Assembly (NCBI RefSeq): GCF_000189635.1
Contig: NW_002476216.1
Location: 1 to 64,000, forward strand
Length of the DNA: 64,000 nucleotides
Source: Tetrahymena thermophila SB210
Taxonomy: Eukaryota; Ciliophora; Oligohymenophorea; Hymenostomatida; Tetrahymenidae
Reading direction: 5' to 3'
The notes beneath the pieces were generated by a model that saw nothing but the letters and a program-made list of their open reading frames with translations, did no database searches and had not been told where the DNA came from. The translations under genes and the position numbers were made by a program. Below are positions 478-57,300 of the stretch, piece by piece. Position 1 is the stretch's first letter, and each line of letters begins with the position of its first letter.

Positions 478-6994
<6,517 letters not shown>

Positions 6995-19100: not shown

Positions 19101-22100
19101 ACTGGTAATGTTGTAGATAATTAAAGTATGGTTCAATCTTAGTTTGTTTAGACATAGTATGGGCTTCCCCCTAGACCCTCAATCTTAATTACGAATCAAT
19201 AAAATTGTATTTATTTTTAATTTGTAAATTATATTAATTAATTAAACAATTTATAATTCATATTAGAGTTACAACCAGCTATTCCTAATAGTGGCTTTGC
19301 TCCTTAGAATAATTAAAATAATTAAACTCCATAAATAAATGTTTTAGATGCTAATAAAGAGGTTGTTTTAAGAGGAGACTGCTCAGTTGAAGAGATTATT
19401 GACTAAATAAAATAAGTGTGTTAGAATAAATATATCAACCCTTTCTATTTATTCGTCTAAATAGATACAAAGTTTATTTGCGGATATGATAAGTAATTAA
19501 TTTTAAATTTGTTATCTAATTTTCATTTTTTAAATTTATTTTACCTATTTTAATTTTTAAAATGAAAATACTTTTTAGCTGTAAAAAAATAATTTAAATA
19601 TGTTTAGAATGAATAAAGATTTTTGAATGTTTATTTTATATCGAAATAAACCATTTTTCTATTAATTAATTAATTAATTTATTAATAAAATGTCAAACAA
19701 ACTTTTTAAAAGTAAGTTTTGGTAACATTATTGAAATATCTTCTACATTTTATTAAAATAATTAATTTTCATCTATGAAAAAGTTCTACTAATTATTTGC
19801 TTAATCAAAACTTTATTCTTATTCTTATTAATTAGAAATATTTCTATTGTCTTTTTAATTGAAGCTATGCGTTTGATTTTATATATCTTACACATAAATA
19901 TCTTGATTAAAAGAATTATCTTCAATAATCTATAGAATAATATATTTATTTTTCAAGATTTTGTAAGCTGAATTTATAAATATTATATATAGAATTTTAG
20001 CATGATTGATATTAAATAAAAAATTTAAAATTATTCATAGTGAAAGTGACATAGAAGAAGTTATGAGCAAAGGATTAGGCATGAAACTTAGAAATTCTCA
20101 TTATATTGACATATCATAGAGGTTTACTATAAAAGAGAAAAAGTTACTGGCCTATTAAAATATATTGAAAGATATTATAGGTTTAGTTTCTCTTGTGAGA
20201 TAATGCATGCTTTACTCAATCAAGGTTCAAGGCATTACTTTAGAAGCTTTTATTAATAATTTGTTTACTTAGTATAAGACAAAGCAATTTTCTGGTGATC
20301 TTCTAAAAGCATACATTTAATACAGCTTAAATATAACTACAGCTACTCCATAAGAAGTTTAGGAATTATTCAATAATATTATGTAACACAATAAAGAGAA
20401 ATTCACTATTTATGATACAATTGCATCTTTCCTTTCAGTCAATGTGAAATATGATGGAGTAAAAAAATATTTATAAAAAAAAATTTTTATTTAAATTTAC
20501 ATATTAAAATAGAAAATGGATAGCATTAATAAGATCGATGTACTCACAACTTCAGGCATTTTAAGCTAAATGAAATTATTGTGCAGCTAACTAAGAATAT
20601 CTTTGATTGATGTGTTCTAGCTTTATGAAAGTTAAGGCCTTTACAATATTAACCCAAGACAATTTTCAAAGATTTTTGAGGATTTAGATATTAACTTAAC
20701 AAAAAATTAAATTGATTCTATAATTCAGTAATACTAAATTGAAGGCCAAATAAAGATTCAATATCCTATATATGAAGCAGAAGCCTTCCCTGAAACGTTT
20801 AGAAAGTTTTGTCTTAATGTTATAAGATGCAATAAGATGGGATTCTAAGATTTCTTCTCACATTTTGCTCCTTAAAATTCTTAAAGATGGACAAAGCAAG
20901 AAATAAAATTGTTGTTCTCTAATTTCCACATTTTTCCTAGTGAAAAGGAGATTGATAGTCTTTATGATGTTATTGCTAAAAGTAATAGTAGTATATATCC
21001 AAACTAATTAGCAGATTTCTTAGGAATTCAATCTAACCTCTCAAGCATTCAGTGTGTTTAATATTACGAAAATATACTTAACAATGTGCAAACAACAATT
21101 AATGAATACAATAGAAATAGACCTGCTCTTTTAAGTAGGTTGTCAGCAATGCCACCTCAAATTAACCCTTATGATGCTCAATATCTATAGAAAAATGCAA
21201 TGTTTGTATAGACCTAAACATAAACACACATAAGATCTCCTTCTTTATTAAATGTGAACCCTCAATAAAGTATGAATGATTTCTAGTTTTAGAGAACAGA
21301 AACAGTAGTCAGCTCTGCATAGCCTTAAAAGCAAGTTTAATTTTCATAAAATAACTTCTACGAAGAACCCTAAAAAAGATATGATCAATAGCCTTAAGGA
21401 TATGACTAACAAAATCAATATGATCAAAGAAGACCTTATGATTAAAACTACCAAGGTTAATAATAGTATGATTAAAGAAGACCATACGATCAAGGCTATG
21501 ATTAAAAAAGACCATAGGACTAAGGTTATGACTAAAGAAGACCATAGGACTAAGGATATGACCCAAGAAGATTTTAAGATTAAGGTTATGATTAAAGAAG
21601 ACCCTAAGACTAAAGATAAGGCTAGAGAAGGTACGATTAAGAGTTTGACTAAAGAGGATACAATTAGTCATAGTATTAATAGCAAAACTAACCGTTTAGT
21701 TAACAACAAAGTTAATAGAATATAAACGAACTAAATAGAGGACAGAATAGCTAATTTGATCCAAGAAGAAGTATGAACTAGTTTGATTAAAGAAACTAAT
21801 TCCAAGATGTTAAAAATAACTCATAAGGCTAAATACCATTTGAACAAAACATGAAAAATAAGCAGATTATTGAAGAATAGGCTAATCTATTATCTATAAG
21901 TTTGAATAATAAAGGCGGTATTGAATTGATAAATAAAGCAGGAAAAGAAGGCACTATTAACCCTGGAATATTTGAAGGAATTCTAGTCAAATTCTATGAT
22001 ATGTTGAGTTCTCCACAACTTAAAATTTTCATCGATAGTCTTCTTGACAACTCTAATATGATATAATTACAAGCAGTATTTAACAAATGCTAATATGATC

Positions 22101-25100
22101 ATAGAAAATTCATAGATAATCAAGAAATAAATAAGTAGTTAGGTGTTGGAAGAAAACAAGATTTGCCTTAAGGATCAAAAGTAATTTTTTAATCATTAAT
22201 GATTAATTTAACAACAAAATTACAATAAACTTTAGCATTTATTTTTGAATAAAATTATTACATTCACAATAAATTATTTTAAAATTTATTAATTTTAACT
22301 TTAAAATTTAATGATTAAATAAAATCTTCATGAGCTTATTAAATTAATTTATTAAACAAAAAAGGCTGTTACTAGTAATGAACAATAAAGAGTTGAATAA
22401 ATTAGATTAGCTCTCTTAGATATATATAAAAACGATTTCCAATAACTCAGTGAAACATTCTTCATGAGTACCCCTTTGATAGATTTATAGCAATTCCTTC
22501 AAATAACAAAGCAGATTTTCTCTATGTCAGGCTCTTAAATTTAACAACCTCATGAAAAGGAATTGGAATGGATGTTTAATGAAATCGATGCAAATTAAGG
22601 AGGAACAATTACATACAATGAATTTGAGTTATATTTTGCTGGAAGCTAAGAAGTTGTTCAAAAAAAGCGCAATAAAAAACTTAGCATTTCACCTCAAATG
22701 GAATAAGAAATTCTTGAATTGTTCAAAGTAGTAGATGTCAATGGTGACTAGCAAATAAATGCTGATGAGCTCAACAGACTTTTCTCAAAAATAGGAAGCT
22801 TTGCTTCAGCTTAGGAAATAGAGGAATATATAAGAAGGTATTTATTTATTTAATGAAAACTAACTTTTAATAAAGCTAACTAACTTTTTTTATTTTGTTT
22901 CAAGATATGATAAAAACGGAGATAGAACTTTAGGATTTGAAGAATTTAAAATGATCATGGAAGAAAAAATAAAGAATGAAATGATGACCTCAGAATCTAT
23001 TATAGATGACTTGAAGAAGGAATTTAAAAAAGTTGACCTACAAAACACAAGAAGCTTAAATATTGGATAGTTAGGTTAGGTCTTCAGTAATATGGGAGTT
23101 CAATTAAAGCCTTCAGAATTAAGTGCATTATTCGTAGAAATAGATGTTGATGGCAGCAGAACTGTTGATATAGACGAGTTGATTGCATTCATTACTAGAA
23201 ACTCAGATGGAGTCAGCACTCTAGCTTAAACAGCCATTTTAAATGTATTTTTATTATAAGATTAAAATTCTTTAAACTAAAAATTAGATTTAATGAATTA
23301 AAATAGTTTATTCAATTTTAAATTTTATTATTTATTTTCTTAGATAAGATCAAGTAGAAAATTTTCTATTAAGGATTTACTTGATACTTTTAAGTAGATG
23401 CCATCAAATTATAGACTTTCTTTTATGAGAACTCAATTTTAAAGAGGCTAAAACTTACCAAGCTCTACTTTGCGCCCTAAAGTAACAGCTTCTCTAATCT
23501 ACTCAGACCTTCATTATGATAACCCAGGAATAATTGATAACAATTTATCAGTTCTTGATCACAAATATAATTAATCTGCCTTCTAAATTGAATTGACATT
23601 TAAGAGTGCTACTGGTATACCGATACCTGATGTAAATGCATTCCCTCGTGATCAAATATTTAAGAGAATTGCTTATGTGTCACTATATGATGGTAATAGA
23701 CAATATTTAGGAAATACATGTAGAATAGAATCATTCTGGAACCCTAATAATGAAGATATATGGTAATATCATTTATTTATTTCTCTTATCATTCTAATAT
23801 TTTTTTTATTTAATTTAAAATGCTAAATTTATTTATTTTTTAGCAAAGCCTAAAAATATTTTAATTACTAAATTTAAAATCCAATTAATAAATTATTATG
23901 CTTGTCGAAAATTGTTTGCATAACAAATAGATTCAATCTGAAATAGAATTTCCATTTTAATATAAAAATAAATTTTTTAATTTAAATATGACTAAATAAA
24001 TGAAGCATAAAATATTTGCAAATTTAATAAAAAAATTATAAGAAAACTATGCTAAAAAAATATTTTATTTACTTTCAAAAATATATTCTGAAATGAAATG
24101 AAATTGATTAGATTTTTCAAAGAAAAAAATTTATGAATTGATAATAAATATTTTTATTTTAATTTAGGGAATTTGAAAAATAATAATTTGGAGATTAAAC
24201 TCTATTTGTTCGTTTTAATGGATATGATAAAAATAAGCACACTAACTTAAATATTTGTATTGAGCTTGTAATGAACTATCTTCCTAAGAAGAGTAATTCT
24301 AAATGTGATTTGGAGATATCTGTTTCTCATGTTATTATACCATTTACTAGTCTTAGCAGAAATGGAGAATATTCTTTTTAACTTAATGGAGGAGAACCTA
24401 CTAAACCTGCTAACATAAGACCTGAAGATATTAGAGCAAAGAGATCAGGAGTTTCGGCTTTGGTAATTTATTTTTAATCAAAGAGTTTCTAATAACTTTG
24501 TATTAAAACATAATAAATAGATTAAGACTTTCAAAAAAGTAGAATCGCAAATTAAGGTCAACATAAATACAAATATTACAAATAAAAATCATCTAAATGA
24601 TTTAGCAATCATGCCTGACATGATTGTCATGAGAAGAACTAATCTTCCCTTCTTCACTATATACAGAGAATACTTTGGTTTCAGGAGCATTTGTAAGAAA
24701 GAAATTGATATTAGCTTAGCTTGCGACCCTATATTTAAGACATTTAGCAAAGTTATTGACTGCCCTGACACTGTTAATTTTATTGGAGATTTTTGGAGAA
24801 ATGAAGTAGTGTAAGAAATTTATTTTTAATTGATAAAACCTAAATATTTATTTATTTATTTATTTATTTTTGAAATAAATAGAGTAAAAATTTAGAAGTT
24901 AGAAGATCAAAAGATTGCCTTCTAAAAAATTATGAATCACCTTTATTTGCTTTTTAATTATGATAGATTTGCATTTGCTCCTAATGATCCTACTGCAAGT
25001 GTTTATTGCTTCCCAATGGTAATTCAAGAAAGAAATAGGTTGCTTAATTTATGTATAGAAGATTTAAGAATTATGCTAGGCCTTAAAATTGGATAACCGT

Positions 25101-27071: not shown

Positions 27072-29356
27072 TCAAATTAGAGATGAGAATATTCTTTTAT
27101 CTATTTCGTTTAAATTATCCTGATTATAGCATTTTTTAATAAAATTCTTAAGATAATCAAACTATTGTTATTCAGATATTGTAACTTCAAATAGTTCTTC
27201 AAAGTGACTCATCTTTTATTCTTTAATTAATTAATTATTTTAATTTTAATATTTTATCAAATTTACCTATGTTTTTGTTTAACTTCTTTTTCCAAAATGT
27301 ATCAGAAAGTCCTACATAAAATAAAGCAGCAAACTGGTCTTTAGTTAGAAGACTCGCAACAGCCTTTTTCAAGAAGATTATATCTTTAAACAATTTTTGA
27401 TAGTCTAAACTATAGTCGACCTACTAGTCTATTTGTAACTTAGTTTCATTATTTAATCCTATTGAATGTAAATATTCCTTCTTTTTGCAGAATCTTTAAG
27501 ATGAAATAAAAAATTAATATTTTAAATGAATAAATGAAAATGATATTTTAATCTAAATCCTAAAATTTTTTTTAATTAATTTTTACTTAAATTTGAAGAT
27601 GATATCTTTAATTTTTCTGGTTAAGAAATTATCCTTTAAAGTTTTTAATTTTTGATCTTCAAAAATTTTATTATTTTCAATTCTAACTTCCTGCTGGTTT
27701 TAATCTTGATTAACAAACTATTTTTTCATTATGTTTTTTTAATTTTTTTAGAGTTTTTATTGCCTTGTATTAGGTAAAAAATTCTTTAATTAGCTTTGTT
27801 CCTTCTAAAAATTTTCTAACCTCTTTATATTTTTAATCTCATTTGATTATTGTATGTTTAATGGACTTGGAGATGTCAAAACTAATTCATAGTTTAAATC
27901 CATTTATTTACTATTTTTAATTAGTTTATTATTAAATAACTCTTTAGAACTTACTAAAGAATGATCTTTTGTATTTTTTCGTTCTATGTTATTTTATTAA
28001 TACACTTAATTTAAAGTTTTTTCTCCAGATTTTGTCAAAAGGTATGGAATTAAAATAGGACTTGTATTCTCTTATTCATTTTAATCTGGGCTACAATCAT
28101 TATTATCATTTGTGTTACAATTACTTTTTTTGCTGCTATTAATTTTATCTTAATCACTTCGATTGTTACTATTTGTATTATTATCGCTATTATTATTTTT
28201 ATTGCTATCATTGCTATTATTTTTATTGTTATCGTTTTTCTTATTGTTTTTATTTTTATTTAGCAAAACATTATTCAACTGTAAAATTTTTTAATAAGTA
28301 CCAGAATATAAATTTTAAAGTATTAATATAAACAAATCCTGTCTTATTAAACTCTAAGCAAGCTATCTTCCAAAAACTCCAAAAAACATTAAAAAAGCTA
28401 AGGTACTATTGCAAATGGATAAAACTTCTGTAAAAGTTGGATATTAAATGTTAATTTATTCAACTTATTCATCTAAGGATATATATATTTACATAAAATA
28501 TTTCAAACCAGTTTACTTACTCACAGTTTATTAATCCAAAGTTTCTGTAAACAGCATGTACGAAATAGGAGAACTGTAACTTGATTCTAATTAAATCAAA
28601 GGACCATCTTTAACATATGTTATTTACTTTATTGCTTTGAATTATCCAATTAATAATTAATTATTAGACATTATAAAATTCTATTGCTTATAATTTGATT
28701 GCATAGACTTTAAAGTTATATTATATTGAGATGTAAATAGTTTTATTTTAATGGCATTCGATTGGTCAATTATATAATTTTCTATTTCTTATGGACTTGC
28801 GCAGTTATCTGGGACAAAATTTTTCTTCATATCAACATCTTAGCATCTATAAGCATTTAATTAAATGTAGGAATTCATACTCTCATTATTTCCAATTGTG
28901 ATCATTTTATTTTCAAGTTTTGAAGTATCAAGACATGAAAAGCCTTAAAGAGAAGGGGTTTTACATTTAATTATATCCAATTTAGTTTCACTTTAATACG
29001 AGTTATTATTAAACACAAAATAAGGAACTATAACTAAATAAGTTTTATTTTATTTATTTTGAATTTCATCTAAAGTTGTTAGGTTCTTCATAGAAAAAAA
29101 CTTAAAGCCGTACATGTCATTATCAAGTGGTATTTCTAATCTATCATTACTAACAAATGTTTAAGATCTAAATTTTGGATCAATTTAATTGCTAAAGTAT
29201 AGCAAAGACATATAAAACAAATAAGCTATTGTAGCCCCTAGTATTGTGATAGATAGAAAAGAGCCTACAATAGTTCTTTTTCTCAAAGACTACTTTCCTG
29301 AATTGAATTAGAAAGACTAAGAAAATATATCCAAGTTTTTTATAAATTCAGTAGGC

Positions 29357-29358
<2 letters not shown>
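27072..29358 (-). CDS. Two-segment membrane protein, copy C of a three-member family
   Basis: Three exons give 715 aa: 27587-29358, 27267-27493 and 27072-27220, with introns of 93 and 46 nt that restore the frame. The start is ATG at 29358 (MPTEFIKNLDIFSQSFQFN). A predicted membrane segment sits near residues 33-55 (IVGSFLSITILGATIAYLFY) and a second near residue 300 (SICNSTLAFLMFFGVF). Between them is a ~240-residue, Cys- and Asn-bearing loop that is probably outside the cytoplasm; after them comes a long cytoplasmic tail. The order and motifs (FVPDNCAS, IDPKFRSQ, LLTKDQFAA, near-C-terminal DKRIFSS) match copies A and B at 56 and 61 kb. Copy C is more diverged and carries an Asn/Ser/Lys-rich insert (28090-28265). 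Function unknown; presumably a ciliate-expanded membrane protein family. Confidence 0.85.
28090..28265 (-). repeat. Asn/Ser/Asp-rich low-complexity tract in copy C
   Basis: The coding strand is a run of AAT, AGC, GAT and AAA codons giving NKNKNNKKNDNNKNNSN-like protein. It sits just after the second membrane segment in the cytoplasmic tail and is absent from copies A and B, so it probably arose by trinucleotide expansion after the copies diverged. Confidence 0.8.

Positions 29359-29398
<40 letters not shown>
29359..29398. repeat. (GATA)n microsatellite abutting the start codon of copy C
   Basis: About ten GATA/TAGA units lie directly upstream of the minus-strand ATG at 29356-29358, so they fall in the 5' UTR or core promoter. 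Length is likely polymorphic. Confidence 0.85.
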
Positions 29399-31056
29399 GA
29401 TTGATGATTGGTGTGTTTTATTTATTGTTTTTTTATTAATTCAATTAGAATTTTATCTGGGAATATTAATTTATATTACTAATTTTCCCAGAATAAATTT
29501 TTAGAAAGCTTATTGAACATGTAATTAAAGTGTTAAATAAATAGAAAACTTCAGTTTATCATTGCTTATTTCGTTAATTAAAAGAAAATATATCAACTTT
29601 TAAAGGCGAAATAAAATTCTGTCTCTCAATCAATCAATACCTAATTGAAGCTAACAATAATGACTTTCATTTGAATAAACAATAAGATAAAAATACAAGG
29701 GTAAAATAACTTTTCATGTTCATTAAATTGAAATATTTTATTAGAACACTCAAATGAAGTATTAATGGTAAAAACTAATTCAATTTCTTCGTCAGCCAAC
29801 AAATTTTCAAAGAACATAAAACTCCATCTCTCAATCAACTAATTACCTTTGAAAAAACTCAGAATAAAATTTAAGTGCAATTTCTTTCTAATAAATCAAT
29901 TGACTTTTTTTTAATTTGAATTGAACAAAAATTTAGGGAAAAGTAGAATCAACCTCTTTATTAGCCGAAGAAAACCAAACAAATTCTGAAATAAAAATAA
30001 AAGCTAAATAAAATTTCTTCTCTCAATTAATCAACCAAAAAACAACTCTTGAGTAAGCACTGAAAAAATAGCTAAACGCAATCTATACTTCTTTCAATTA
30101 ATCAATCAATCAAATTTTTGAACAAATACTCGAACAAACCAATAATGGCAAAATAAAATGTTAGAATTCCATTCAATCAAATACTTTTGAACATAAATTT
30201 AAATGCAAAAAATAAAAATTTCATCCATCTCTTAATCTACTAATTAATTATTTTGCACAAGCATTAAAATGAAATTTGGGGGGGAGAAATAGAAGGGTTT
30301 TTTTCCTTTTAGAATTTATTTAAGATTAAAATTTTATCCCTTTATCTTATAAAAATAAAAAGAAAGGTTGATATATAATGATAGGGGAATTCTAAGGTTG
30401 TCTGTAAAATATTCCTTTGAGGGTAGAATACTCTCATTAGGGCGAAAATTTATAAAAATATCGACCACATATTGCTTATTAGGCAGATGATTGAAATTAA
30501 AACCCAAATTTTAGATTTCGTAAATAGAAGTTATTTATAGAGGGATATTTTTGAAAAGTAGTAATGAGTAGCCTCTCCTTTTCTTTCTTAGAGTTCTTCT
30601 CTCTTGATCCTAAAGATGGCGCCCCAAATGACTGGTAGGTAATATATTCAAAAAGAAAGTGTTCTTAAATTTGATTTTAATTTCCTCAAATTGAAACTTT
30701 TTTAGTGAAAGGGAGTATAATGTAAAGCGGAAAAGGATATTTTCTAGTTTTTCCATAAAATTAGCTGTTTATTCTCTTAAAAAAAATATATTTTGATAAT
30801 TTAGGAAAGATTACTATATAGTTTCTTACAAAATCTTTTATTTTTATTTATCGAAAAATTTTATATAATTAATTATAAGCATTTTTTTCATCTAAAATTT
30901 CAATCCTAATTAATCAATTAATGTGATTGATATATTTTTATTTTTTTAGTTATTAAATTTAAAAATTGATTTTCAATTTAATAGTTCCTACAATAAATTT
31001 TAGAAATGATTCGAAAAAAATATTCTTTCCTCAAAATTCAAACATAAATGTTCCAA
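29399..31056. other. Intergenic region with degenerate minisatellite and a GC-richer island
   Basis: From about 29620 to 30260 a loose repeat recurs, with a pyrimidine-rich start (TCTCTCAAT) followed by CAATCAATCAA and ACTxTTGAxxAA blocks, spaced roughly 70-80 nt in the best part (30010-30240). It is followed at about 30280-30680 by less AT-rich sequence containing a small ORF (listed separately). The rest to 31056 is AT-rich. No transposon ends were recognised. Confidence 0.5.
30564..30674 (+). CDS. Possible micro-ORF (36 aa), GC-richer than surroundings
   Basis: ATG at 30564 opens a 37-codon frame (including TGA) starting MSSLSFSFLEFFSLDPKDGA and ending CSQI. Its base composition, including GGCGCCCC near 30618-30625, is unusual for this window. 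GGTAGGTAAT at 30634 could be a splice donor, in which case this is a first exon; no matching downstream exon was found. It could equally be part of a non-coding RNA. Function unknown. Confidence 0.25.
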
Positions 31057-32847
31057 TCATTAATTTTTTTGATGTTATGATTGAATTTCTTCAATAGTTT
31101 ATATTAAAATAGAGGAATCAGGTCTATGGTCAGGATTGGTTTCTAGCATTTTTATTACTAAAAGAATAATTTAACTATATTTAGTATCTTTATACATATT
31201 CTTCATTAATCTAATTTTTGCTTATTTAAATATTTCATCACAATTAACTTATGAGATATCAGCTAGAGTGAGCATGTACAACAAGATCATTCCCAAACTA
31301 AATATGTCACTTTTAAAAAAATTAATTGTTTTATCTCTCTTCATTTCTCTCAACTCGGGAGACATCCATTTAAGAGTTCCAAAAGCTATATTATTTTAAA
31401 ATTGTTCTGATTAATATAATTCTTAAGCACATCCGAAATCTGAAAGATAATAGTTTTCTTCTCTAATTAATATGTTTGATGGCTTTAAATCCCTATGTAC
31501 TATTCCTTCATCTGAGTAGATTAAAGCTAAAGTTTTACCTATTTAGACTAAGAATTTTACTATTTCTTCTTGATTGAATTATTCAAGCTATTTTTAAGTT
31601 TGAATATTAAAAATAAAAATCAAAAAAATATTTACTAAAATAATTCAGTAATTTTTTTAATTTTTGAATTAATTTAAGTATGTACATCAGCTTGTTTTTA
31701 ATTGATTTATTCTTGTAAATTAGATTCAGCTAAGTCTAAAATGAGGTAAGTTGATCTGTTTGATACAATATAATTTTATAGTTTTTTAACATAGTCATAT
31801 TTTTTTAATTTTTCTAAGACTTCTATCTCATGGAAGGCGCTACTGCTTATATTATCCATTTATTCAGAAACACAAATCTATTTGCACGCATAATAATCTG
31901 GCATATTTGATAAAATATCTTGATTTTTGATTATTTCTTTGTGCTTATTTTTGACTTTATAGACATCTCCATAGCTACCAGAACCTAAAGAATCTCTAAA
32001 ATCTATTTCATACTTTTTTTAAAACTGCTCTTTTGATATTTTGATTGCCTATTTAAATATCAGATCTTCAAGTCTAGCTAAAAACTTCTTGCCTTTTTTA
32101 GCCTCTTTTTTTTGTTTTAAAAACAAATAACAGAGTAAAAAAAAGGCATAGTATAGACTAAAATATTTAAATTTTAATTAATGCTAAATTAGTAGATAAA
32201 TAAGGGTTATTTAATTAATATGTTGAAAATTATTAATAATTAAAGTTATTATTTTATTCATCAACATATGTTACAATTAAATAATCTTTACTTTTGGATA
32301 AATAGATTGTTTAATTATTATTTTGTTAAGCATATTCCTTTACAAAATCATTGTAATTTAATATAATTTAGTAAATGTATAACACTTTTTAGCTGTTTTC
32401 TGAGCTTGGATCTTTATAACTCATCAAAAAATATGAATTACTCTGATATTAGTAATTATAGTTAAATTTAGGCAAATCTTATTTATTTCTAAAACTCTCA
32501 CTGAAGTCTTTTATTATTTTTAAGTGATTATCCTATGTAACATAATTGAATAAATAGATATTTGTGTTTGGTATTATTTAATCTATCATTTTATTTTTAA
32601 ATATGAATGTATTATATTTCGAAGATATTAAAGCTTAGTCTCCACCAAAGGATTGAATTTCCTCGAATTCATCTTCATCTTCCAAACAAAATATTTGTTA
32701 CAAAATTAAATAATTAACTTTTTATTTAATTTAATACAAGCACTTGTTTGAGTCAGATGTAAAAAAACCTAATTACATAATATTAGGTATTTAAATTTAG
32801 GGGATATAAAACCACTGCTTGCTACTCATACTGTTAATGTCATTCAT
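31057..32847 (-). CDS. Protein kinase with possible single membrane segment (receptor-like)
   Basis: Phosphorylates protein Ser/Thr by inference. From ATG at 32847 a ~225-residue N-terminal region (acidic LEDEDEFEEIQSFGGD, then Tyr/Asn-rich) precedes a hydrophobic segment (YFSLYYAFFLLCYLFL, ~32110-32160). The kinase domain then follows: glycine loop GSGSYGDVYKV, beta-3 Lys in YYACKQI, hinge YLILDLAESNL, catalytic HRDLKPSN, DFG in YLSDFGCAQE, SPE for APE, and SDIFSLGMILLYML. An intron at 31588-31685 (98 nt) splits the domain in frame. Stop TGA at 31057-31059. The N-terminal part and the kinase lie in frames differing by one nucleotide. The change falls near T8 and A8 runs at 32100-32150, so an unseen intron, a sequence error or real frameshifting is possible. 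All catalytic residues are present. Confidence 0.8.
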
Positions 32848-34261: not shown

Positions 34262-37200
34262 TCAAAAAAAATATATTTTAAAGACAATTAATCTTTTTAA
34301 TTTAAGACACTTGCTTTTTATTTCCTCTTTTGATTCATATGTTTAGTTAATACTTTTATAATAAGTTAGAGTAAATTATTAATAAAATGAAATAAAATAA
34401 ATTTTTAAATTAAAGTTTTTATTTTAAATTAATAAATAAATAAAAATAATATTAGCAGAATAAAAAGATGAAGATAAATAAATAAAATAAAAAGTCATCA
34501 AATTAATTAATTAATAGCTTTGCTGTTTTAAATTTATTTTTATTATTAAAAATATCGTTATCCAAAATAAATAAACTGTTTTTACCTAAGACAAAGTATC
34601 AAATTTGAGAGATTAGTACAATTTGCTAAAGCAGAACCCAAGCGATATACACCTTAATCACCAATTTAATTATTACTTTTTAATTATTGAAAAAAAAATA
34701 AAAAATTAATTTTAGGAAAAAATGAATTAATAATAAATAAGTTAATTAATAATATAAACAAAAGTTGAAAATAATAAAATGAGTTAAATTAACATAGAAA
34801 CAAACAAAAAAATAAAATAAAAAGCTTTCAAATTAATAAAAAGAGCTTTATTGTTTTAAATTCATTTTTATAATTAAAAAGATAGCAACTCAGAACAAAT
34901 AAACTGTTTTTACTTAAGAAACAGTGACAAAGTTGAGAGATTAGTACAATTTGCTAAAGCAGAACCCAAGCGATATACACCTTAATCACCAATTTAATTA
35001 TGACTTTTTAATTATTGAAAAAAAAATAAAAAATTAATTTTAGGAAAAAATGAAGAAAAAATATGAATTAATAAAAAATAAGTTAATTAATAATATAAGC
35101 AAAAGTTGAAAATAATAAAATGAGTTAAATTAACAAAGAAACAAAAAAAGAATACAAGAATAAAAAAAATAAAATAAAAAGCTTTCAAATTAATATAAAG
35201 AGCTTTATTGTTTTAAATTCATTTTTATAATTAAAAATATCGTTATCCAAAATAAATAAACTGTTTTTACTTAAGATAAAGTGTCAAAGTTGAGAGATTA
35301 GTAAAATTTGCTAAAGCCAAAACCAAGCCTGATACACCTTAATCACCAATTTAATTTGCGCTTTTTAATTATTAAAGAAAAAATATGAATTAATAAATAA
35401 GAAATGAGTTAATTAATAATGTAAGCAAAAGTTGAAAATAATAAAATTAGTTAAATTAACAAAGAAACAAGAAAAAAAATACAAGAATTAAAAAAAATAA
35501 AAATAAATCAAATAAAAAGCTTTCAAATTAGTGAAATGAGCTTTATTGTTTTAAATTCATTTCTATAATTAAAAAGATAGCAACTCAGAACAAATAAACT
35601 GTTTTTACCTAAGAGAAAGTATCAAATTTGAGAGATTAGTATAATTTGCTAAAGCAGAACCCAAGCAATATACACCTTAATCACCAATTTAATTTTCACT
35701 TTTTAATTATTGAAAAAAAAATAAAAAATTAATTTTAGGAAAAAATGAAGAAAAAATATGAATTAATAATAAATAAGTTAATTAATAATATAAACAAAAG
35801 TTGAAAATAATAAAATGAGTTAAATTAACATAGAAACAAAAAAAAAATAAAATAAAAAGCTTTCAAATTAATAAAAAGAGCTTTATTGTTTTAAATTCAT
35901 TTTTATAATTAAAAAGATAGCAACTCAGAACAAATAAACTGTTTTTACTGAAGATGTAGTGACAAAGTTGAGAGATTAGTACAATTTGCTAAAGCAGAAC
36001 CCAAGCGATATACACATTAATCACCAATTTAATTTTCACTTTTTAATTATTGAAAAAAAAATAAAAAATTAATTTTAGGAAAAAATGAAGAAAAAATATG
36101 AATTAATAAAAAATAAGTTAATTAATAATATAAGCAAAAGTTGAAAATAATAAAATGAGTTAAATTAACAAAGAAACAAAAAAAGAATACAAGAATAAAA
36201 AAAATAAAATAAAAAGCTTTCAAATTAATAAAAAGAGCTTTATTGTTTTAAATTCATTTTTATAATTAAAAATATCGTTATCCAAAATAAATAAACTGTT
36301 TTTACCTAAGATAAAGTGTCAAAGTTGAGAGATTAGTAAAATTTGCTAAAGTCAAAACCAAGCCTGATACACCTTAATCACCAATTTAATTTTAACTTTT
36401 TAATTATTGAAGAAAATATATATAAGTAAATAGTTAAAAATAAGGAAAAATGAAGAAAAAATATGAAATAATAAGAAATGTGTTATTTAATATTGTAAGC
36501 AAAAGTTGAGAACTATAAAATTATAAAATGAGTTAAATTAACACAGAAAGAAGAAAAAAAATAAAAGAATAATAAAAAAAATATAAATTTAAATCAAATA
36601 ATATCAAATTAATCAAATGAGCTTTATTATTTTAAATTCATTTTTATAATTTAAATGATAGCAACCCAAAATAGATAAATAAACTATTTTTACTTAAGAT
36701 AAAGTGCTAAAGTTGACAGATTAGTATAATATGTTAAAGCAGAACCTAAGCCTGATACATCTTCATCATAAATTTTATTTTATCTTTTAAATTATGAAGA
36801 AAAAATATAGCTGATTTCAAATAATTTTTATATTAATAATGAATTTTTTTTAATTTATTTGAAATTGATTTTGCTATGCTACCTAAAAAAAAACTTTTTT
36901 TCGTACCCCCCCCCCCCTTAATAAAAATTTATAAAAAACAAATAACTTAATTTAAAATTATAAATTTTATTTTAAAAATATTAAAAAAAGGCTTTAATAT
37001 TTGATTTGAATATTAAAATCAAATAAACTGCTTTTACTCAAGATGAAGTACCAAACTTTAGAGATTAGTGCAATTTGCTAAAGTAGTGACTAAGCGTTAT
37101 GCACAATTTGCACTGATTTAATTTGAACTTTTAAAATTTTGAAGAAAAAATATTTTATTAATTATTTATTAAGAAGGAAAAAATATGAAATAATAAGAAA

Positions 37201-40200
37201 CTTCTTAAATAGTAATAAAAGCAAAAGTTGAAAAAAAAATGAGTTAAATTAATAAAGAAAAAAGAAATAAAAAACAAGCACAATAAAAAAGTAAAATAAA
37301 AATAAATTAAATAAAAAGCCATTAAATTAATTAAAAGAGCTTTATTGTTTTAAATTCATTTTTATAATTAAAATTATCATAATCCAAAACAAAAAACTAT
37401 TTTTACCCAAGATTAAGTGTCAAATTTAAGAGATTAATGCAATTTGCTAAACTAGTACCTAATACTGATGCATTTTAATCGCCAATTTAACTGCCACTTT
37501 TTAAATATTGAAGAAAAAAAAAATATATATATATAAATATAATAGTCAATTAGAAGGAAAAAATGAAGAAAAATATGAAATAATAAGAAATGAGTTAATT
37601 AATAATAAAATGAGTTAAATTAACATAAAAAGAAGAAGAAAAAATACAAGTTTTATAAATAAAAAAAATAAAATAAAAAGCTAAAAATTAATTAAAAGAG
37701 CTTTATTATTTTAAATTAGTGTTTAAAATTAAAAATATCACAATCCAAAATTAATAAATTGTTTTTACTAAAGATCTAGTGTCAAATTTGAGAGATTAGT
37801 ACAATTTGCTAAAGCAGAACCTAAACTGAATGTACCTTTATCACCAATTTAATTCCACCTTATTAAATATTGAAGAAAAAATATATAATTAATGAGTTAT
37901 TTAGAAGGAAAAATGAAGAAAAGTATGAAATAATAAGAAATGAGTTAATTAATAATAAAAGCAAAAGTTTAAAATAATAAAATGAGTTAAATTAACATAA
38001 AAAGAAGAAGAAAAAATACAAGTATAATAAATAAAATAAAAAGTTATGAAACTAATTAAAACAACTTTATTGTTTTTAAAATTCATATTTATAATTAAAA
38101 ATATCGCAACCCTAAACAAATATACTGCTTTACGTTAGATCAAGTGTCAAAATTTAAAGATTAGTGCAATTTGTTAAAGCAGAACTTAAGCCTGATACAC
38201 CTTAATATCCAATTTATTAATTATTACTTTTTAATTATTGAAGAAAAAATTTTTAATTAATTAGTTAATAATAAGGAAGGAAAAAATGAAAAAAATAAAA
38301 TAAAATAATAAGAAATGAGTTAATTAATAATGAAAGCAAAAGTTGAAAATAATAAATAAATTGAGTTAAATAACAAAGAAAAAAGAAGAAAAAACATCAA
38401 GTACATTAAAATGAAAAATAAATCAAATAAAAGTTATCAAATAAATTAAAAGAGCTTTAAAATTTTAAATTAATTTTTATAATTAAAAATATATTTACGC
38501 AAGTCTAAGTCTCAAATTTGAGAGTTTAGTGCAATTTAAAATAAAACTTAGTCCTTATGCACCTTTATCACCAATTTAATTCACTCTTTTTAAATATTGA
38601 AGAAAAAATATATAATTAATTAATTAGTTAGTTAGAAGGAAAAAATGAACAAAAAAGATAGATTTAATAAATAATAAGAAATATATTAATTAATAATTTA
38701 ATTAAATATAGAAAATAATAAAGTGAGTGAGTTAAATTAACAAACTAAGAAGAAAAAAAGCACAATCAAAAGAAAAAGTAAAATAAATAACTATCAAATA
38801 TATTAAAAGAGTTTCATTGTTTTAAATTAATTTTAATAATTAAGAATATATCACAATCCAAAACAAATACACTGATTTTACCTAAGATCAAGTTTCAAAT
38901 TTGAGATCTTAGTGCAATTTGTTATAGCAGAACCTAATGCTGAAGCACCTTCATTGCCAATTTAGTTTTATCTTTTTAAATATTGAAAAAAATATATAAT
39001 TAATAATAGGTGAATTAAAAGGAAAAAATAAACAAACAATAAATGAAAAAAAATCTGAAATAATAACAAATTAATTAAAGAGCTTTATTGTTTTAAATTC
39101 ATTTTTATAATTAAAACACAATCCAAAACAAATAAACTGTTTTTACATAAGACTAAATTTCAATTTTGAGAGATTGATACAATTTTTTAAAGCAGAAACT
39201 AAGCCTATAACTCCTTAATCGCCAATTTAGTTATTACTTTTTAAATATTGAAGAAAAAATAAATAAATAATTAAAAAGTTAGAAGAAAAAATATGAAATA
39301 AGTCAATAAATATTAATTTAAAAGTTGAAAGTATTAAAATGAGTTAGATAAACAAAGAAACAAGAAGAAAAAGCATCAAGCGCATTAAAAAGAAATAGAA
39401 AAATAAATCAAGTTAAGTAATAGATAGAGCTTTATAGTTTTAAATTAATTTTTGTTATTAAATATATCACACACAATCCAAAACAAATAAACTGAATTTA
39501 CTCAAGTTTAAGTGTCAAATTTGAGAGATTAGTGCAATTTACTAAAATAAAACCTAGTCCTTATGCACCTTTATCACCAATTTAATTCTATCTTTTTAAA
39601 TATTGAAGAAAAAATATATAATTAATTAATTAATTATTTAGTTAGTTAGTTAGTTAGAAGAAAAAAATGAAGAAAAAATTTGAAATAATAAGAAAAGAGT
39701 TAGTTAGTTAATTAATAATAACATTAAAAATCGAAAATAATAAAATGATTTAAATTAACAAAGAAAGAAGAAAAAAATTTAAGCACAATAAATAGAAAAA
39801 CAAATAAAATCAAATAAATAATTAAATAAAAAGAGTTTCCTATGTTTTAAATTAATTTTAATAATTAAAAATATCACAATTCAAAATAAATAAACTGATT
39901 TTACCTAAGATCAAGTTTCAAATTTGAGAGATTAGTACAAAATGCAAGAGAAAAACCTAAGACTGACGCACCAATTGCACCAATTTAATTATCACTTTTT
40001 AAATATTGAAGAAAAAATATATTATTAATTAATTAATTAGTTAATTAGAAAGAAAAGATGAAGAAGATTATGAAATAAAAGAAAATCAAAATAAATTTGA
40101 AAATAATAAAATCAGTTAAATTATCCAAGAAAAAAAGAAGAAAAAAAAATACAAGCAAAATAAAAAAGAAAAAGAAAAATAATTCAAATAATATTTATTA

Positions 40201-41830
40201 TTTTAAATTAATTTTTATAATTAAAAATATCATTATTTAAAAAAAATAAACTGTTTTACTAAAGTTAAAGATTCAAATTTGAGAGTTTAGTGCAATTTGC
40301 TAAACCAGAACCTAAGCCTGATGCACCAGTTGCACCAATTGAATTTGACCTTTTTAAGTATTGAAGAAGAAATTTTTTATTAAAGAGTTAATTAGAAGGA
40401 AAAAATGAAGAAAAATAAGAAGTAATAAGAAATGAGTTAATTAATAATAAAAGTAAAAGTTAAAAATAATAAAATCAGTTAAATTAACAAAGAGACAAGA
40501 AAAAAATACAAGCAAAATAAAAAGAAAAATAAATCAAATAAAAAGTTATCAAATAAATTAAAAGAGCTTTATTGTTTTAAGTTAATTTTTATATTAAAAA
40601 TATCACTATCTAAAACAAATAAACTGTTATTACATAAGTTTCAGATTCAAATTTGAGAGTTAAGTGCAATTTGCTAAACCAGAACCTATGGTTGATGCAC
40701 CTATTGCACCATTTAAAAAGTTATCATATGAGTCAAAATAGCTTTATTGTTTTTAATTAATTTTTTATGATTTAAAATATTACAATCCAAATCAAATAGA
40801 CTGATTTTACCCAATATTAAGTGTTAAATTTGAGAGATTAGTGCAATTTGCTAAAGCTAAAGCTAATTCTGATTCGCGAGTAACTTCATTTTCACTTTTA
40901 AGATTGAAAAATATATATATAATTAATTAATTAGAGGGAAAAGTGAAGAAAAAATATGAAATAATAAGAAATAAGGTAATTAATTAGTTTTAAATGAAAA
41001 AGTTCAAAATAAAAAAATAAGTTAAATTAAAAAGAAAGACGAAGAAAAAAACAAAAAAAATAAAAAAGAAAAAGAAAAATAAATCAAATAAAAAGATATC
41101 AAATAAATTAAAAGAGTTTTATATTTTTAAATTAATTATTTAATTAAAAGCATCGCAATACAATACAAATAAACTGTTTTTATCAAGTAAGTAAAAGTGT
41201 TAATAGCAAAAAATGAAGAAAAAGATATCAAATAATATTAAATAAATAAATAATGATGAATTAAAAATGGAAAGTTAAAATTAAGTTAAAATAGCTAAAA
41301 AAAATATTTTATATATTAAAATAAATGAAAATATATATATGAGAATTTCTATGAGAAAAATCATATTAGAAATAAATTCAAAGTTAAATATAAAAAAAAT
41401 GTTAACTATAATAATAATAATATATATAAATTATATTTACGTAAGATTAATATGGAGTACCTAATGAGATTGAAGAGAAGAGTCTATAAACTTTTTTTAT
41501 TAATAAAATAAACTTAAAGGATTATCATAAAAAAAATAAATAATTACTTCTTCTAAAACTTAGTAATATTTAGTCTATTATATCATTTATTTATTTCTTT
41601 TTTCAAAAATATTGAATAGCAATTTATGGAAATTTAATTAATTATAAATGGATAAAAAGAACAAATAAATTATAATAATTATCAAATTTTAATTTTTTAA
41701 TTAGTTTTGAGGAAGAGATATCACAAAAAGTTAGTGTAATATTAATTATTTAATCTTAATACTTCTATTTAAAGTGTCTACTTAAAAATATATAGCTGTT
41801 CCTTCCTTCATTTGAAATATCACGAACCAT
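34262..41830 (-). CDS. Leucine-rich repeat protein encoded by an array of one-LRR exons
   Basis: Ciliate-code frames on the minus strand give ribonuclease-inhibitor-type LRRs, one per exon. Each exon is about 90 nt, starts after (A)AAAG or CAG-like acceptors and ends at GTAAAA-type donors, all in phase 2. A typical unit reads xNQIGDQGVxxLGSALAN, then CTNLSNLxLxL. The terminal exon (34262-34313) gives KCLKLKRLIVFKIYFF and TGA. A short exon at 41441-41490 (FIDSSLQSHQVLHINL) and a first exon from ATG 41830 (MVRDISNEGRNSYIFLSRHF) are proposed for the N-terminus; the first exon's donor is unclear. The protein would be about 670 aa, mostly a curved LRR solenoid for protein binding. Exons sampled across the array have no TGA in the splice frame, so the array appears intact. 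Confidence 0.8.
34586..41190 (-). repeat. Tandem array of ~350-bp exon-plus-intron units (19 LRR exons)
   Basis: LRR exons, in plus coordinates: 34586-34675, 34914-35003, 35271-35360, 35609-35698, 35949-36038, 36306-36395, 36694-36783, 37038-37127, 37407-37496, 37769-37858, 38134-38226, 38499-38585, 38882-38971, 39147-39236, 39502-39591, 39905-39994, 40260-40349, 40634-40741 and 40811-40894. Fifteen are exactly 90 nt; the others are 84, 87, 93 and 108, all divisible by three. A decayed unit lies near 41165-41210. Introns are also homologous, sharing GAGCTTTATTGTTTTAAATT and AAATGAGTTAAATTAACA-like blocks on the plus strand. The unit of duplication is therefore exon plus intron, and similarity is highest at the 3' (low-coordinate) end. 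Confidence 0.9.
36906..36917. repeat. Poly-C (12) homopolymer in an LRR-gene intron
   Basis: Twelve consecutive C residues in otherwise about 85% AT intron DNA, next to A/T runs. On the transcribed strand this is a G-run. Confidence 0.9.
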
Positions 41831-54360: not shown

Positions 54361-57300
54361 ATAAAATCTATTTCAAATTTGAAATATTTAAATGCAGATT
54401 ATGTCAGTGATTTGCATTACATTCTAAGATAATTAAATATATTTATTTATCTAACTATTTAATAAATAAAATTTGAAATAAAATAATAAAAAGCAAACAA
54501 GTGTATGTATGAACTCCTCTAACTATTATCTACTCTCTTTTAATTTTGAGCCTTTTAATTATATTTTGCATGTTAATTTAATTTTTATGATTAGCATTAA
54601 TCCAATTTTTGTAGAGTTTGTTTGTAAAAAAAATTCAAATTCATTGATTAGCAAATTCGTGGTTTTATTTAATCATTCAAACATACTAATTAATTTCTTT
54701 TTATTAACTTACATCAATAATTAAATTTATTTATTTATTTATCTCTTTACCTCGTCTTCCAAAGAAAAGTAAGATTGATTTATTTATTTTTTATAAAGGA
54801 TTTTTAAATAGTTAGTGGTTAAAATTAATAATTTTATAATAAACAAATAACTTCTCTAGTAAGTATTTATTTTGAAAATCACTCTTGGTAAGAAATATCA
54901 TATAAATCAAATTTTAATGTCTAAATATATTAATTTAAAATAGCGTTCACCCCATTAAAATAAAATGACAATATATCTTTTTAATATAAAATTGAAAACA
55001 CATTCTTTTCTCTTTAAAATTGCTTGATTTTTTAGCTTGTTTATTATTCATTAACCTTTATGAATTTAGTTTTTCTTCTAAAAAATGTGGTAGGTGGATG
55101 TCTTACAATTAATTTTATTCATTATTAATAAATTTTTTAATTTAAATGATTCTCTTACAATCAAAATTTAATAGAATTTATTGGCTATTTAATAAATTTA
55201 ATTGCTAAAATATATTAATAGGTTGCGTATTAACTTACATAGATGTTTTATATTCATATTATAATAAAAAATAAATATTTTAGTTTATTTTTTATATTAT
55301 TTGCTCTTGATGAACTTCAATATAAATTAAATTAGTATTAAAGATACTTCAATTTAAAATTTATTTTCTTAACAAATTTTAAAATACTTGTTTTTAAAAA
55401 ATTTTAAGTTTAGAAATTTAAAATACAATTAACTAATTCTAAAAATGCAAAGTTATTTTTGTAAATTATGGTCCAAAATGTATTTATATTATTTTGCTTA
55501 AATAGACATAAAATAGGGTTATTATATTTTAGTATTAATAAGTGTTAATTAATTTGCCTCTTTTTCTTATTTTTTAATTCAGGTAAATAATCAGAAACAT
55601 TATTTGTATATTAAATGTGATTTATAATAATCTTAACATAATTTAATAACAACACTCTATAATACTAAGTAAGCAAATATTAAGAAAGAATACAATTTAT
55701 TTATAATATTTCCAAAAAATGTCTAAGATAAATTTATGATTATATTTAAAATTATAATATCTAAATAAAATTGAGTAAAAAATTATAAATTTACGAAATT
55801 TGCTGTGTGGAATTTTATAATATTTCTAAAATATAATAAAATAAAAATAATAAAAGAAAGAAAACCATTTTAAAGTAATTTTGATTTGACATAAATTTTA
55901 CTTTATTATGAATGAAATGATTGGTTAATTTTAAAAGATGGAGAATTATATTTATATTTTTAAAATATTTAGTAGAGTTAAATGACTTGATAATAACCAA
56001 ACTGATTTAATGAGGTAAAAATGAGTGACGAAAGAAAATGTTACCAACATTAAAATTTTGATGTATTATTAAATCTTATTAAAATAAAATTTAAAGTAAA
56101 ATTTTCTAACCTTTAAAATTTCTTCTTAATGATGAACCCAGTAAAAGAAATAAATAAAAACTAAAATTTAAGTTAGTTATAACCTTATTAATAGTTGGTG
56201 CTACCTTGAAATAAAAATAATATATAAATTAATTAAAAAAACAATACTTTAAGTATCAAAAAAATTATTAAAAAATTATAATAATTTACAATTTACAATT
56301 TTAAGATGCTTCTCTCAAAATTTGATTTATTTTCACAACCTTTCCTTTTTAATTTAAATAATAACCAGTTTAAAAAAGGAACAATACAGGGTTTACTTTT
56401 GTCTTTGGGAATCACAGGGACAATACTTGCATATTTTATTTACTTAACCTATCAATTTTTCTAAAATAAAATAGACCCTATTTTCAGATCATAAAATTTT
56501 GTCTCTAATGACCTAATAGAAGTGCCTTTGCACGAAGATTTGGTAGCTTTTTAATTTGTTCATAGTCCTTAATAGACCCTTGATTAGTTAGAACAAAAAA
56601 TGAATAAAACATATATTGTACCTATGGCTACTTTTGCATTTGAAACAACAGGTGCTTACAATTAAACTTTTCTAAATATCTCTAAATGCTCTAATCCTGA
56701 TCTTAATGGCTACTATTGTTTAGATTTCTCTACCTTGGCTAATAGTAGTTTAATTAGTAACTTTAAGAATAATATTTTTTCTGTTATAACACTCCTCTTT
56801 TATCCTTGCCCAACTACAGATAACATAAAGACATTCGTTCCAGATAATTGTGCTAGCCAAAGCGATATTGACAATTTTGCTAATGATGCTTATACTTCAC
56901 TTCGTTTAAGGCTGTTTACTTAATAATACAATACTACTAGCAAATAAACCCAAACTAATTTTAAGTAATTTTAGATGTTTCCTTAGTCAGATTAATACAT
57001 TTTGAATAGGTAATATGTATAAAACCAAATAACAAAAGTGAAAGATGGCCTTATCATTTAATCTGAATCTGAATATAATGCTCCTATTTCCTATACATAT
57101 GATAATCAATATTTTCCAAATTACTAGAATCCTTATATCTAAGTTAGTATTCAAATAGAAGAAGTTATTTACTAAACATCAATTTAATTTTCAACTTTCC
57201 CACAGATTTTAGCATTAGTTAACAGTGCTTTTAGTCTTTTAATATTTTTGGGAATCTTTTGTAAAAAATTTGCAAATAAGTCAATTTTGTAGGATTTTTT

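What the first reader, a model, noticed from the sequence alone, without database searches (positions are those of the whole stretch)
34262..41830. One-exon-one-LRR gene: 19 frame-neutral exons in a homologous exon-intron array
Seen: 19 minus-strand exons, each a single ~30-residue LRR, all of length divisible by three and in the same splice phase, separated by introns that are themselves repeats of each other. Known: symmetric exons can be added, lost or skipped without changing frame. Inferred: the gene grew by unequal crossover of a ~350-bp unit, and alternative splicing or recombination could give LRR solenoids of different length. That would be a simple way to diversify a binding surface in a ciliate.
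Basis: partly seen in the sequence, partly recalled or inferred. Interest (0 to 1): 0.85.

Follow-up and report, generated by a model that had tools for sequence, protein, structure and literature searches.

The report
Tetrahymena 90-bp-exon LRR gene array
This is one of the many Tetrahymena genes in which each small exon encodes one leucine-rich repeat, an architecture published in 2019; a closer look shows that its predicted binding-surface residues, which sit on both sides of every intron, change about eight times faster than neutral DNA, as expected of a recognition protein.

Summary
A 19-unit LRR exon array lies on the minus strand, 40894..34586: 15 exons are exactly 90 bp, three are 84, 87 and 93 bp, and unit 2 has lost its usual acceptor. 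The 18 recognised exons are phase 2. The genome is very probably Tetrahymena thermophila (TERT fragment 101 of 102 residues identical; median array intron 258 bp, 257 published). Architecture and unequal crossing over are already published (Xiong et al. 2019, PMC6564038, group III LRR genes). I add a gene model with conserved caps and a three-unit block duplication.

The main new result: codons 28, 30 (split by the intron) and 1, which map to the exposed x positions of LxLxxN, are hypervariable in 26 of 26 arrays with five or more exons and in 31 held-out exons. In 30 disjoint blocks they differ at 45% of nucleotides, against 5.5% in introns and 6.0% at fourfold sites; structural codons change less than introns. 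In this gene's own block duplication, introns differ 1/504 and exons 17/270, 12 of the 17 in those codons. I read this as diversifying selection on a binding surface. I saw no report of it in the searches made. Splicing choice and ligands are untested.

The parts
41548..41586 (-). exon 1 (N-cap), 39 bp, MIQQTKYYQVLEE; conserved start codon 41586
   Evidence: Same length and reading frame in 6 of 6 relatives fetched
41441..41490 (-). exon 2 (N-cap), 50 bp, FIDSSLQSHQVLHINL + 2 nt, ends in phase 2
   Evidence: Same length in 6 of 6 relatives; the codon before the last Leu and the last 2 nt vary
40811..40894 (-). LRR exon 1, 84 bp
   Evidence: 6 nt shorter than 5 of 6 relatives in the alignment (L032 does not align here)
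40634..40741 (-). LRR unit 2, usual acceptor lost; possible 108-bp exon from a cryptic AAAG acceptor
40260..40349 (-). LRR exon 3, 90 bp
39905..39994 (-). LRR exon 4, 90 bp
39502..39591 (-). LRR exon 5, 90 bp
39147..39236 (-). LRR exon 6, 90 bp
38882..38971 (-). LRR exon 7, 90 bp
38499..38585 (-). LRR exon 8, 87 bp
38134..38226 (-). LRR exon 9, 93 bp
37769..37858 (-). LRR exon 10, 90 bp
37407..37496 (-). LRR exon 11, 90 bp
37038..37127 (-). LRR exon 12, 90 bp
36694..36783 (-). LRR exon 13, 90 bp
36306..36395 (-). LRR exon 14, 90 bp; first exon of duplicated block, copy A (36395..35609)
35949..36038 (-). LRR exon 15, 90 bp, copy A
35609..35698 (-). LRR exon 16, 90 bp, copy A
35271..35360 (-). 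LRR exon 17, 90 bp; first exon of duplicated block, copy B (35360..34586)
34914..35003 (-). LRR exon 18, 90 bp, copy B
34586..34675 (-). LRR exon 19, 90 bp, copy B
34262..34352 (-). terminal exon (C-cap), INQTYESKEEIKSKCLKLKRLIVFKIYFF*, stop 34264-34262
   Evidence: Same kind of peptide (CLKSKRLVV.. then a stop) in 4 of 5 relative copies examined, with differing acceptors; not in L011; 3' module shared with 39 other places

Best explanation
The locus is one gene of the Tetrahymena 90-bp-exon LRR family (group III). It encodes an LRR solenoid: a two-exon N-cap, 19 repeats at one exon each (unit 2 damaged), and a one-exon C-cap; a Pfam scan of exons 3-19 passes cut-off only for LRR families. SHOWN in sequence: a three-unit block has been duplicated. 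Three codons per repeat (28, 30 and 1) are hypervariable; they align to the x residues of LxLxxN, and codon 30 is split by the phase-2 intron, so each intron sits inside the variable strand. These codons differ about 8 times more than introns and fourfold sites, while structural codons differ less than introns. INFERRED: unequal crossing over adds and re-pairs half-strands, selection favours new residues at the exposed sites, and the product is a recognition protein, probably in the cytosol, whose ligands (bacterial food, pathogen, toxin or self) change. Alternative splicing is possible but not needed.
For: Family: 15 of 19 exons are exactly 90 bp and the 18 recognised exons are phase 2. In window + L001-L028, 317 of 329 exons found are 90 bp, median intron 258 bp against 257 published for T. 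thermophila group III. TERT fragment 101/102 identical to PDB telomerase chains. Conserved caps. Selection (outer introns chosen, middle intron as yardstick), 30 disjoint blocks, 60 exon pairs: intron 407/7419, fourfold 42/704 (ratio 1.09, 0.77-1.43), variable nt 244/540 (ratio 8.2, 6.9-9.8), rest pos1+2 266/3240 (1.50). pN 0.453 at codons 1 and 28 against 0.027 at structural codons. 26 of 26 arrays with at least 5 exons show variable sites >2x the rest. Held-out L036-L040: 31 of 31 exons 90 bp, pi 0.60 against 0.13, introns 9.0%; 5 of the 8 most diverse nt are the predicted ones, the other 3 in codons 6-7. Window block: introns 1/504, exons 17/270, 12 of 17 in the nine variable nt (P 3e-10). 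7 of 9 variable nt are 36-58% GC (two are 11%), against 16% in introns and 15% at fourfold sites. Codons 28, 30, 1 of one repeat align without gap to x of LxLxxN in 5irm, recalled as NOD2.
Against: No RNA or protein evidence here. Gene-level Ka/Ks in the 2019 paper is below 1 (median about 0.4 for young LRR genes) and was read as relaxed purifying selection. Non-variable exon sites also exceed introns (1.50x at pos1+2; in the window block 5/243 against 1/504, P 0.016), so some intron homogenisation cannot be excluded. Synonymous classes disagree: fourfold equals introns but two-fold sites are lower (18/657; all synonymous together 0.81, 0.59-1.03). The fourfold interval at the tightest setting is wide (0.67-2.57, 7 blocks). 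In other repeats of the PDB alignment a two-residue gap falls at varying places, so the strand register is not fixed. The L011 C-cap does not fit. Unit 2 is damaged, so this particular gene may be decaying. Signal peptide and membrane spans were not tested.
Confidence: 0.78

Rival explanations
1. Targeted mutation: a mutagenic process (for example reverse-transcriptase-driven, given the REP retrotransposon neighbours reported for this family) hits the exon edges, and selection only filters the outcome.
For: The variable codons sit within about 8 nt of the splice sites and differ strongly while flanking introns differ by 1.6-5.5%. A non-LTR element is reported beside such arrays in the germline.
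Against: Codon 29, between variable codons 28 and 30, stays conserved (pos3 differences 0.000, 0.000 and 0.028 in three bins). Asn2 next to codon 1 is 97% conserved, so an adenine-specific, DGR-like process does not fit. Fourfold sites match introns.
Confidence: 0.07
2. Introns are homogenised by gene conversion and exons escape, so the introns are a false clock.
For: Interior introns of the window block are nearly identical (1/504) while exons differ 17/270, with 5/243 outside the variable codons. In low-divergence pairs chosen on introns, exon third positions also exceed introns (2.48x).
Against: The excess is inflated by choosing low-divergence introns. With the outer-intron design, fourfold sites equal introns (ratio 1.09, 0.77-1.43). 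It cannot explain why codons 1, 28, 30 (and less so 3, 6, 7, 15, 26) are fast while structural codons are slower than introns.
Confidence: 0.1
3. Relaxed constraint: exposed residues are simply free to drift.
For: The residues are variable and predicted exposed. The 2019 paper reads gene-level Ka/Ks as relaxed purifying selection.
Against: Drift cannot exceed the neutral rate; the observed divergence is 8.2 times introns and about 7.6 times fourfold sites. Base composition at 7 of 9 variable nt is far from that of introns and fourfold sites.
Confidence: 0.04
4. Decaying pseudogene array with no product.
For: Unit 2 lost its acceptor and exons 1, 8 and 9 deviate from 90 bp. Its exons outside the variable codons are more diverse (pi 0.21) than in 23 of the 25 other arrays.
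Against: 0 TGA in 520 codons; the three length changes are multiples of three; caps intact.
Confidence: 0.12

Closest known systems
Tetrahymena group III 90-bp-exon LRR genes (Xiong et al. 2019, PMC6564038)
   Same: Exactly 90-bp exons, phase-2 introns, ~257-bp repeat introns in T. thermophila, tandem arrays, unequal crossing over proposed
   Different: This gene has irregular exons and its last six units are 75-78% identical to the best full-length relatives in the genome. The hypervariable codons are not described in the main-text passages and sections I read, and a term search of the main text found 0 'hypervariable' and 0 'positive selection'; logo figures and supplements were not seen
Human NLR LRR exons (NLRP3 and kin; PMC6642158, abstract and passages seen)
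   Same: LRR modules map onto frame-preserving exons that can be skipped; alternative splicing is shown there
   Different: Part of nucleotide-binding immune receptors; skipping is untested here
Plant NLR/LRR receptors and lamprey VLRs (recalled)
   Same: Diversity concentrated at xxLxLxx exposed strand residues
   Different: No signalling domain seen here, no evidence of somatic assembly of cassettes as in VLRs; intron inside the variable strand

Membership tests
Tetrahymena group III 90-bp-exon LRR genes | Tandem (>=3) exons of exactly 90 bp | tested here: met
   15 of 19 exactly 90 bp, runs of 5 and 10
Tetrahymena group III 90-bp-exon LRR genes | Phase-2 introns on both sides | tested here: met
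   18 of 19 units; unit 2 only by a cryptic acceptor
Tetrahymena group III 90-bp-exon LRR genes | Intragenic repeats detectable at nucleotide level, introns near 257 bp in T. thermophila | tested here: met
   Median 267 in this gene, 258 in the sample; repeats
Tetrahymena group III 90-bp-exon LRR genes | Masked by one of the published consensus repeat sequences | not tested
   The consensus sequences were not on hand
Tetrahymena group III 90-bp-exon LRR genes | REP retrotransposon neighbour in the germline genome | not testable with these tools
   No germline genome held; the assembly size (101 Mb) suggests a macronuclear one (inference)
Tetrahymena thermophila (species) | TERT identity and intron length peak | tested here: met
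   101 of 102 aligned aa; 258 against 257 bp, and 232 in T. malaccensis; that the PDB chains are T. thermophila is recalled; TERT of other species was not compared
RI-like LRR fold | LRR profile match | tested here: met
   PF13516 LRR_6 E 1.7e-31; ribonuclease inhibitor and RanGAP chains, and 5irm/5irl (recalled as NOD2), among 20 PDB matches
Alternatively spliced LRR receptor (NLRP3-like) | Transcripts lacking single LRR exons | not testable with these tools
   No RNA data
NLR immune receptor | Nucleotide-binding domain joined to LRR | tested here: not met
   No such domain in the scanned exons 3-19; caps were only read by eye; the kinase-like frame 31620-32351 is a separate minus-strand frame
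VLR-like somatic assembly | Somatic rearrangement of LRR cassettes | not testable with these tools
   One assembly only

The most novel reading that the evidence does not exclude
A germline recognition repertoire in a single-celled eukaryote: many LRR solenoids whose binding residues reach near-saturated turnover before neutral DNA has diverged about 5%. Introns placed inside the binding strand let every crossover (and any exon skip) make a new half-strand pairing without breaking frame and almost never creating a junction stop.
Probability: 0.45. Interest if true: 0.85.

Novelty: new member of a known kind. Interest (0 to 1): 0.58.

Why it matters
[quoted passage not shown] The 2019 paper suggested recognition from numbers and domain company. 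A strong, site-specific signature of diversifying selection at predicted exposed strand residues turns that suggestion into a testable statement, names the residues to test, and shows that each intron lies within the variable strand, which may be why intron phase and position are so strictly kept.

Tried and rejected
One search joined exons before unit 2 was resolved, so its long translation is meaningless; the correct joins are. One search used too strict a motif (11 exons) and was replaced. The low-divergence pair analysis picks pairs by intron similarity and so overstates ratios (25x in its first bin). In one search the 0.06 setting had dropped block pairs whose middle introns shared few 12-mers (77 candidate rows); one search puts them back and bootstraps by block: 8.2x (30 blocks) instead of 8.9x (27 blocks); the 0.03 and 0.04 settings are unchanged (9.6x with 7 blocks, 9.1x with 14 blocks). 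The pN/pS classes still rest on the 27 filtered blocks. A DGR-like adenine-specific process was considered and rejected on Asn2 conservation. Linkage: residues 1 and 28 vary independently within an exon and across the intron (MI not above shuffles), while 6 and 7, and 28 and the last two bases, are linked. The junction intron of the window block (13-14 against 16-17) differs 24/243 with 7 gaps, and no sharp crossover point was found.
Full report
OBSERVATION. On the minus strand from 40894 to 34586 there are 19 LRR-coding units. With code 6 (TAA/TAG = Gln), 15 of 19 exons are exactly 90 bp; exons 1, 8 and 9 are 84, 87 and 93 bp; unit 2 has lost its usual acceptor, and a cryptic AAAG would give an in-frame exon of 108 bp. 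The 18 normal units are phase 2. The 17 introns measured are 175-313 bp, median 267 (my count). The coding frame has 0 TGA in 520 codons. In the window and 28 own-genome loci the same simple rule finds 329 such exons, 317 of them 90 bp; three Markov-1 controls gave 0, 2 and 1 exons of any length and none of 90 bp. The window gives 17 of its 19 by that stricter rule.

GENE MODEL. The 5' flank (41794..40992) is shared at 72-80% with 42 other genome places by long matches (my count). In the window and 6 of 6 relatives fetched it holds a 39-bp exon (MIQQxKYYxxLEE type) and a 50-bp exon (FLSSSLLSHQVLHIxL type) that ends in phase 2. So the gene probably runs 41586..34262.

WHAT IT IS. The genome is 101.0 Mb in 445 contigs. 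Its TERT RNA-binding stretch is identical at 101 of 102 aligned residues to PDB telomerase chains, the one difference at the edge of the match (that these are T. thermophila is recalled). The median intron between 90-bp exons is 258 bp; Xiong et al. 2019 give 257 bp for T. thermophila and 232 for T. malaccensis. That paper describes thousands of such genes: exactly 90-bp exons, >98% phase-2 introns, tandem repeat units, unequal crossing over and a REP retrotransposon nearby (I read the abstract, sections 8, 9, 11, 17, 19, 27 and search passages; not figures or supplements). The finding as stated is therefore a member of a known kind.

HYPERVARIABLE CODONS. Across 317 exons the amino-acid entropy peaks at residue 1 (3.62 bits), residue 30 (3.37, from 270 junctions; the codon split by the intron) and residue 28 (3.01); next is residue 7 (2.37). 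Leu 12, 16, 22, 25, 27, 29 and Asn2 lie at 0.10-0.40. In a PDB match to 5irm (listed as uncharacterized protein; recalled as NOD2) one repeat aligns without a gap, so that L27-x28-L29-x30-x1-N2 is the LxLxxN strand motif; in other repeats a two-residue gap falls before or inside this stretch, so the register is likely but not fixed. The x residues of that motif are the usual exposed binding positions (established knowledge). The intron thus lies inside the variable strand.

RATE TEST. I chose pairs of blocks by their two outer introns and used the middle intron as the neutral yardstick. In 30 disjoint blocks (60 exon pairs, outer introns <6%): intron 407/7419 = 5.5%; fourfold sites 42/704 = 6.0% (ratio 1.09, 95% block bootstrap 0.77-1.43); nine variable nucleotides 244/540 = 45% (ratio 8.2, 6.9-9.8); pos1+2 of the remaining codons 266/3240 = 8.2% (ratio 1.50, 1.25-1.76); other synonymous sites 18/657 = 2.7% (all synonymous together 0.81, 0.59-1.03). 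With outer introns <4% (14 blocks) the variable-site ratio is 9.1 (6.8-11.5) and <3% (7 blocks) 9.6 (7.1-13.1). By codon class, on the 27 blocks of the earlier filtered version, pN is 0.453 (codons 1, 28), 0.212 (3, 6, 7, 15, 26), 0.065 (other) and 0.027 (structural), against pS 0.065 outside codons 1 and 28 and an intron value of 0.049. Synonymous change no higher than introns argues against exon-limited conversion or general exon hypermutation. Leu29 stays conserved between two variable codons, which argues against a local mutation hot spot. Variable sites are near saturation, so 8 is likely a lower bound. 26 of 26 arrays with at least five exons show variable sites more than twice the rest. 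Five loci fetched afterwards as a held-out set give 31 of 31 exons of 90 bp, pi 0.60 against 0.13, all-pairs intron distance 0.090; 5 of the 8 most diverse nucleotides are predicted ones and the other 3 lie in codons 6-7.

IN THIS GENE. Exons 14-16 and 17-19 are copies of one three-unit block. The two interior introns differ 1/267 and 0/237 (plus 14 gap bases). The three exon pairs differ 5+7+5 = 17 of 270; 12 of 17 fall in the nine variable nucleotides per exon (P 3e-10), and exon against intron gives P 1.5e-7. Five differences lie outside (5/243 against 1/504, P 0.016), which I report against a pure reading. This block is first in the list ordered by intron identity, so it illustrates rather than proves.

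HOW IT MAY WORK. Frame-neutral units let crossovers add or remove repeats; a first base of T in 84% of exons means most junction codons cannot be TGA (0 of 153 forward joins among the 18 recognised exons of this array, 210 of 100,489 joins in the sample). Residues 1 and 28 are in linkage equilibrium within an exon and across the intron, as expected if half-strands are re-paired freely. The germline mutation rate is very low, 7.61e-12 per site per division (PMC5585995, abstract), so even 0.2% neutral divergence leaves a long time for selected changes (inference). Function as a recognition protein is inferred; the 2019 authors suggested bacteria recognition.

PRIOR REPORTS. Searches for Tetrahymena with LRR plus hypervariable (3 papers), leucine-rich repeat plus diversifying selection (2), LRR genes plus 90-bp (1), leucine-rich repeat plus pathogen recognition (12; one listed), and at least three of ciliate, leucine-rich repeat, positive selection, concave (82; one listed) gave listings (titles and abstract starts) in which I saw no report of these codons. 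The 22-strain T. thermophila paper has 0 'LRR' and 0 'leucine-rich' in its main text (passages). Most subscription journals are not covered. PMC6642158 (abstract and passages) shows frame-preserving LRR exons and exon skipping in human NLRP3.

Noticed in passing
window 36917-36906 and 36851-36814 (intron between LRR exons 12 and 13): An insertion of about 100 bp with a run of 12 G in a region of about 18% GC; a 38-bp part is 95% identical to the gene's own 5' flank (41885-41848). It may be a leftover of an eliminated germline sequence (inference).
   Followed up: no
window ~41220-41100: The long intron after N-cap exon 2 carries a stretch that matches the array introns, preceded by what looks like a relic of an LRR exon end; it aligns in the window and in the six relatives L030-L035, so an ancestral first repeat may have been lost.
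   Followed up: partly
window 56306-58318 (+) and 61481-63493 (+); similar opening at 27199-29520 (-): Tandem pair of 670-aa frames that look very similar by eye, and a 773-aa frame that resembles them; no Pfam match for the three.
   Followed up: no
window 31620-32847 (-): Protein-kinase-like frame (Pkinase E 1e-6, below cut-off) just downstream of the LRR gene, overlapping an upstream Met-started frame with a hydrophobic stretch.
   Followed up: no
window 826-1299 (-): PI3/PI4 kinase domain, E 2.6e-31.
   Followed up: no
window 16053-22856 (+): EF-hand matches in the two frames scanned, 16053-18218 and 22311-22856; between them a 30-bp tandem repeat at 21467-21630 within the frame 20063-22333.
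   Followed up: no
L009, L012, L013, L015, L025 and others: Several LRR arrays lie at or near contig ends (for example C229, C231, C414), so repeat number near breaks may be an assembly matter.
   Followed up: no
L012 (G000:C377): A few short introns (113 aligned bases) recur in this array, close to the sharp 122-bp intron class reported for T. thermophila.
   Followed up: no
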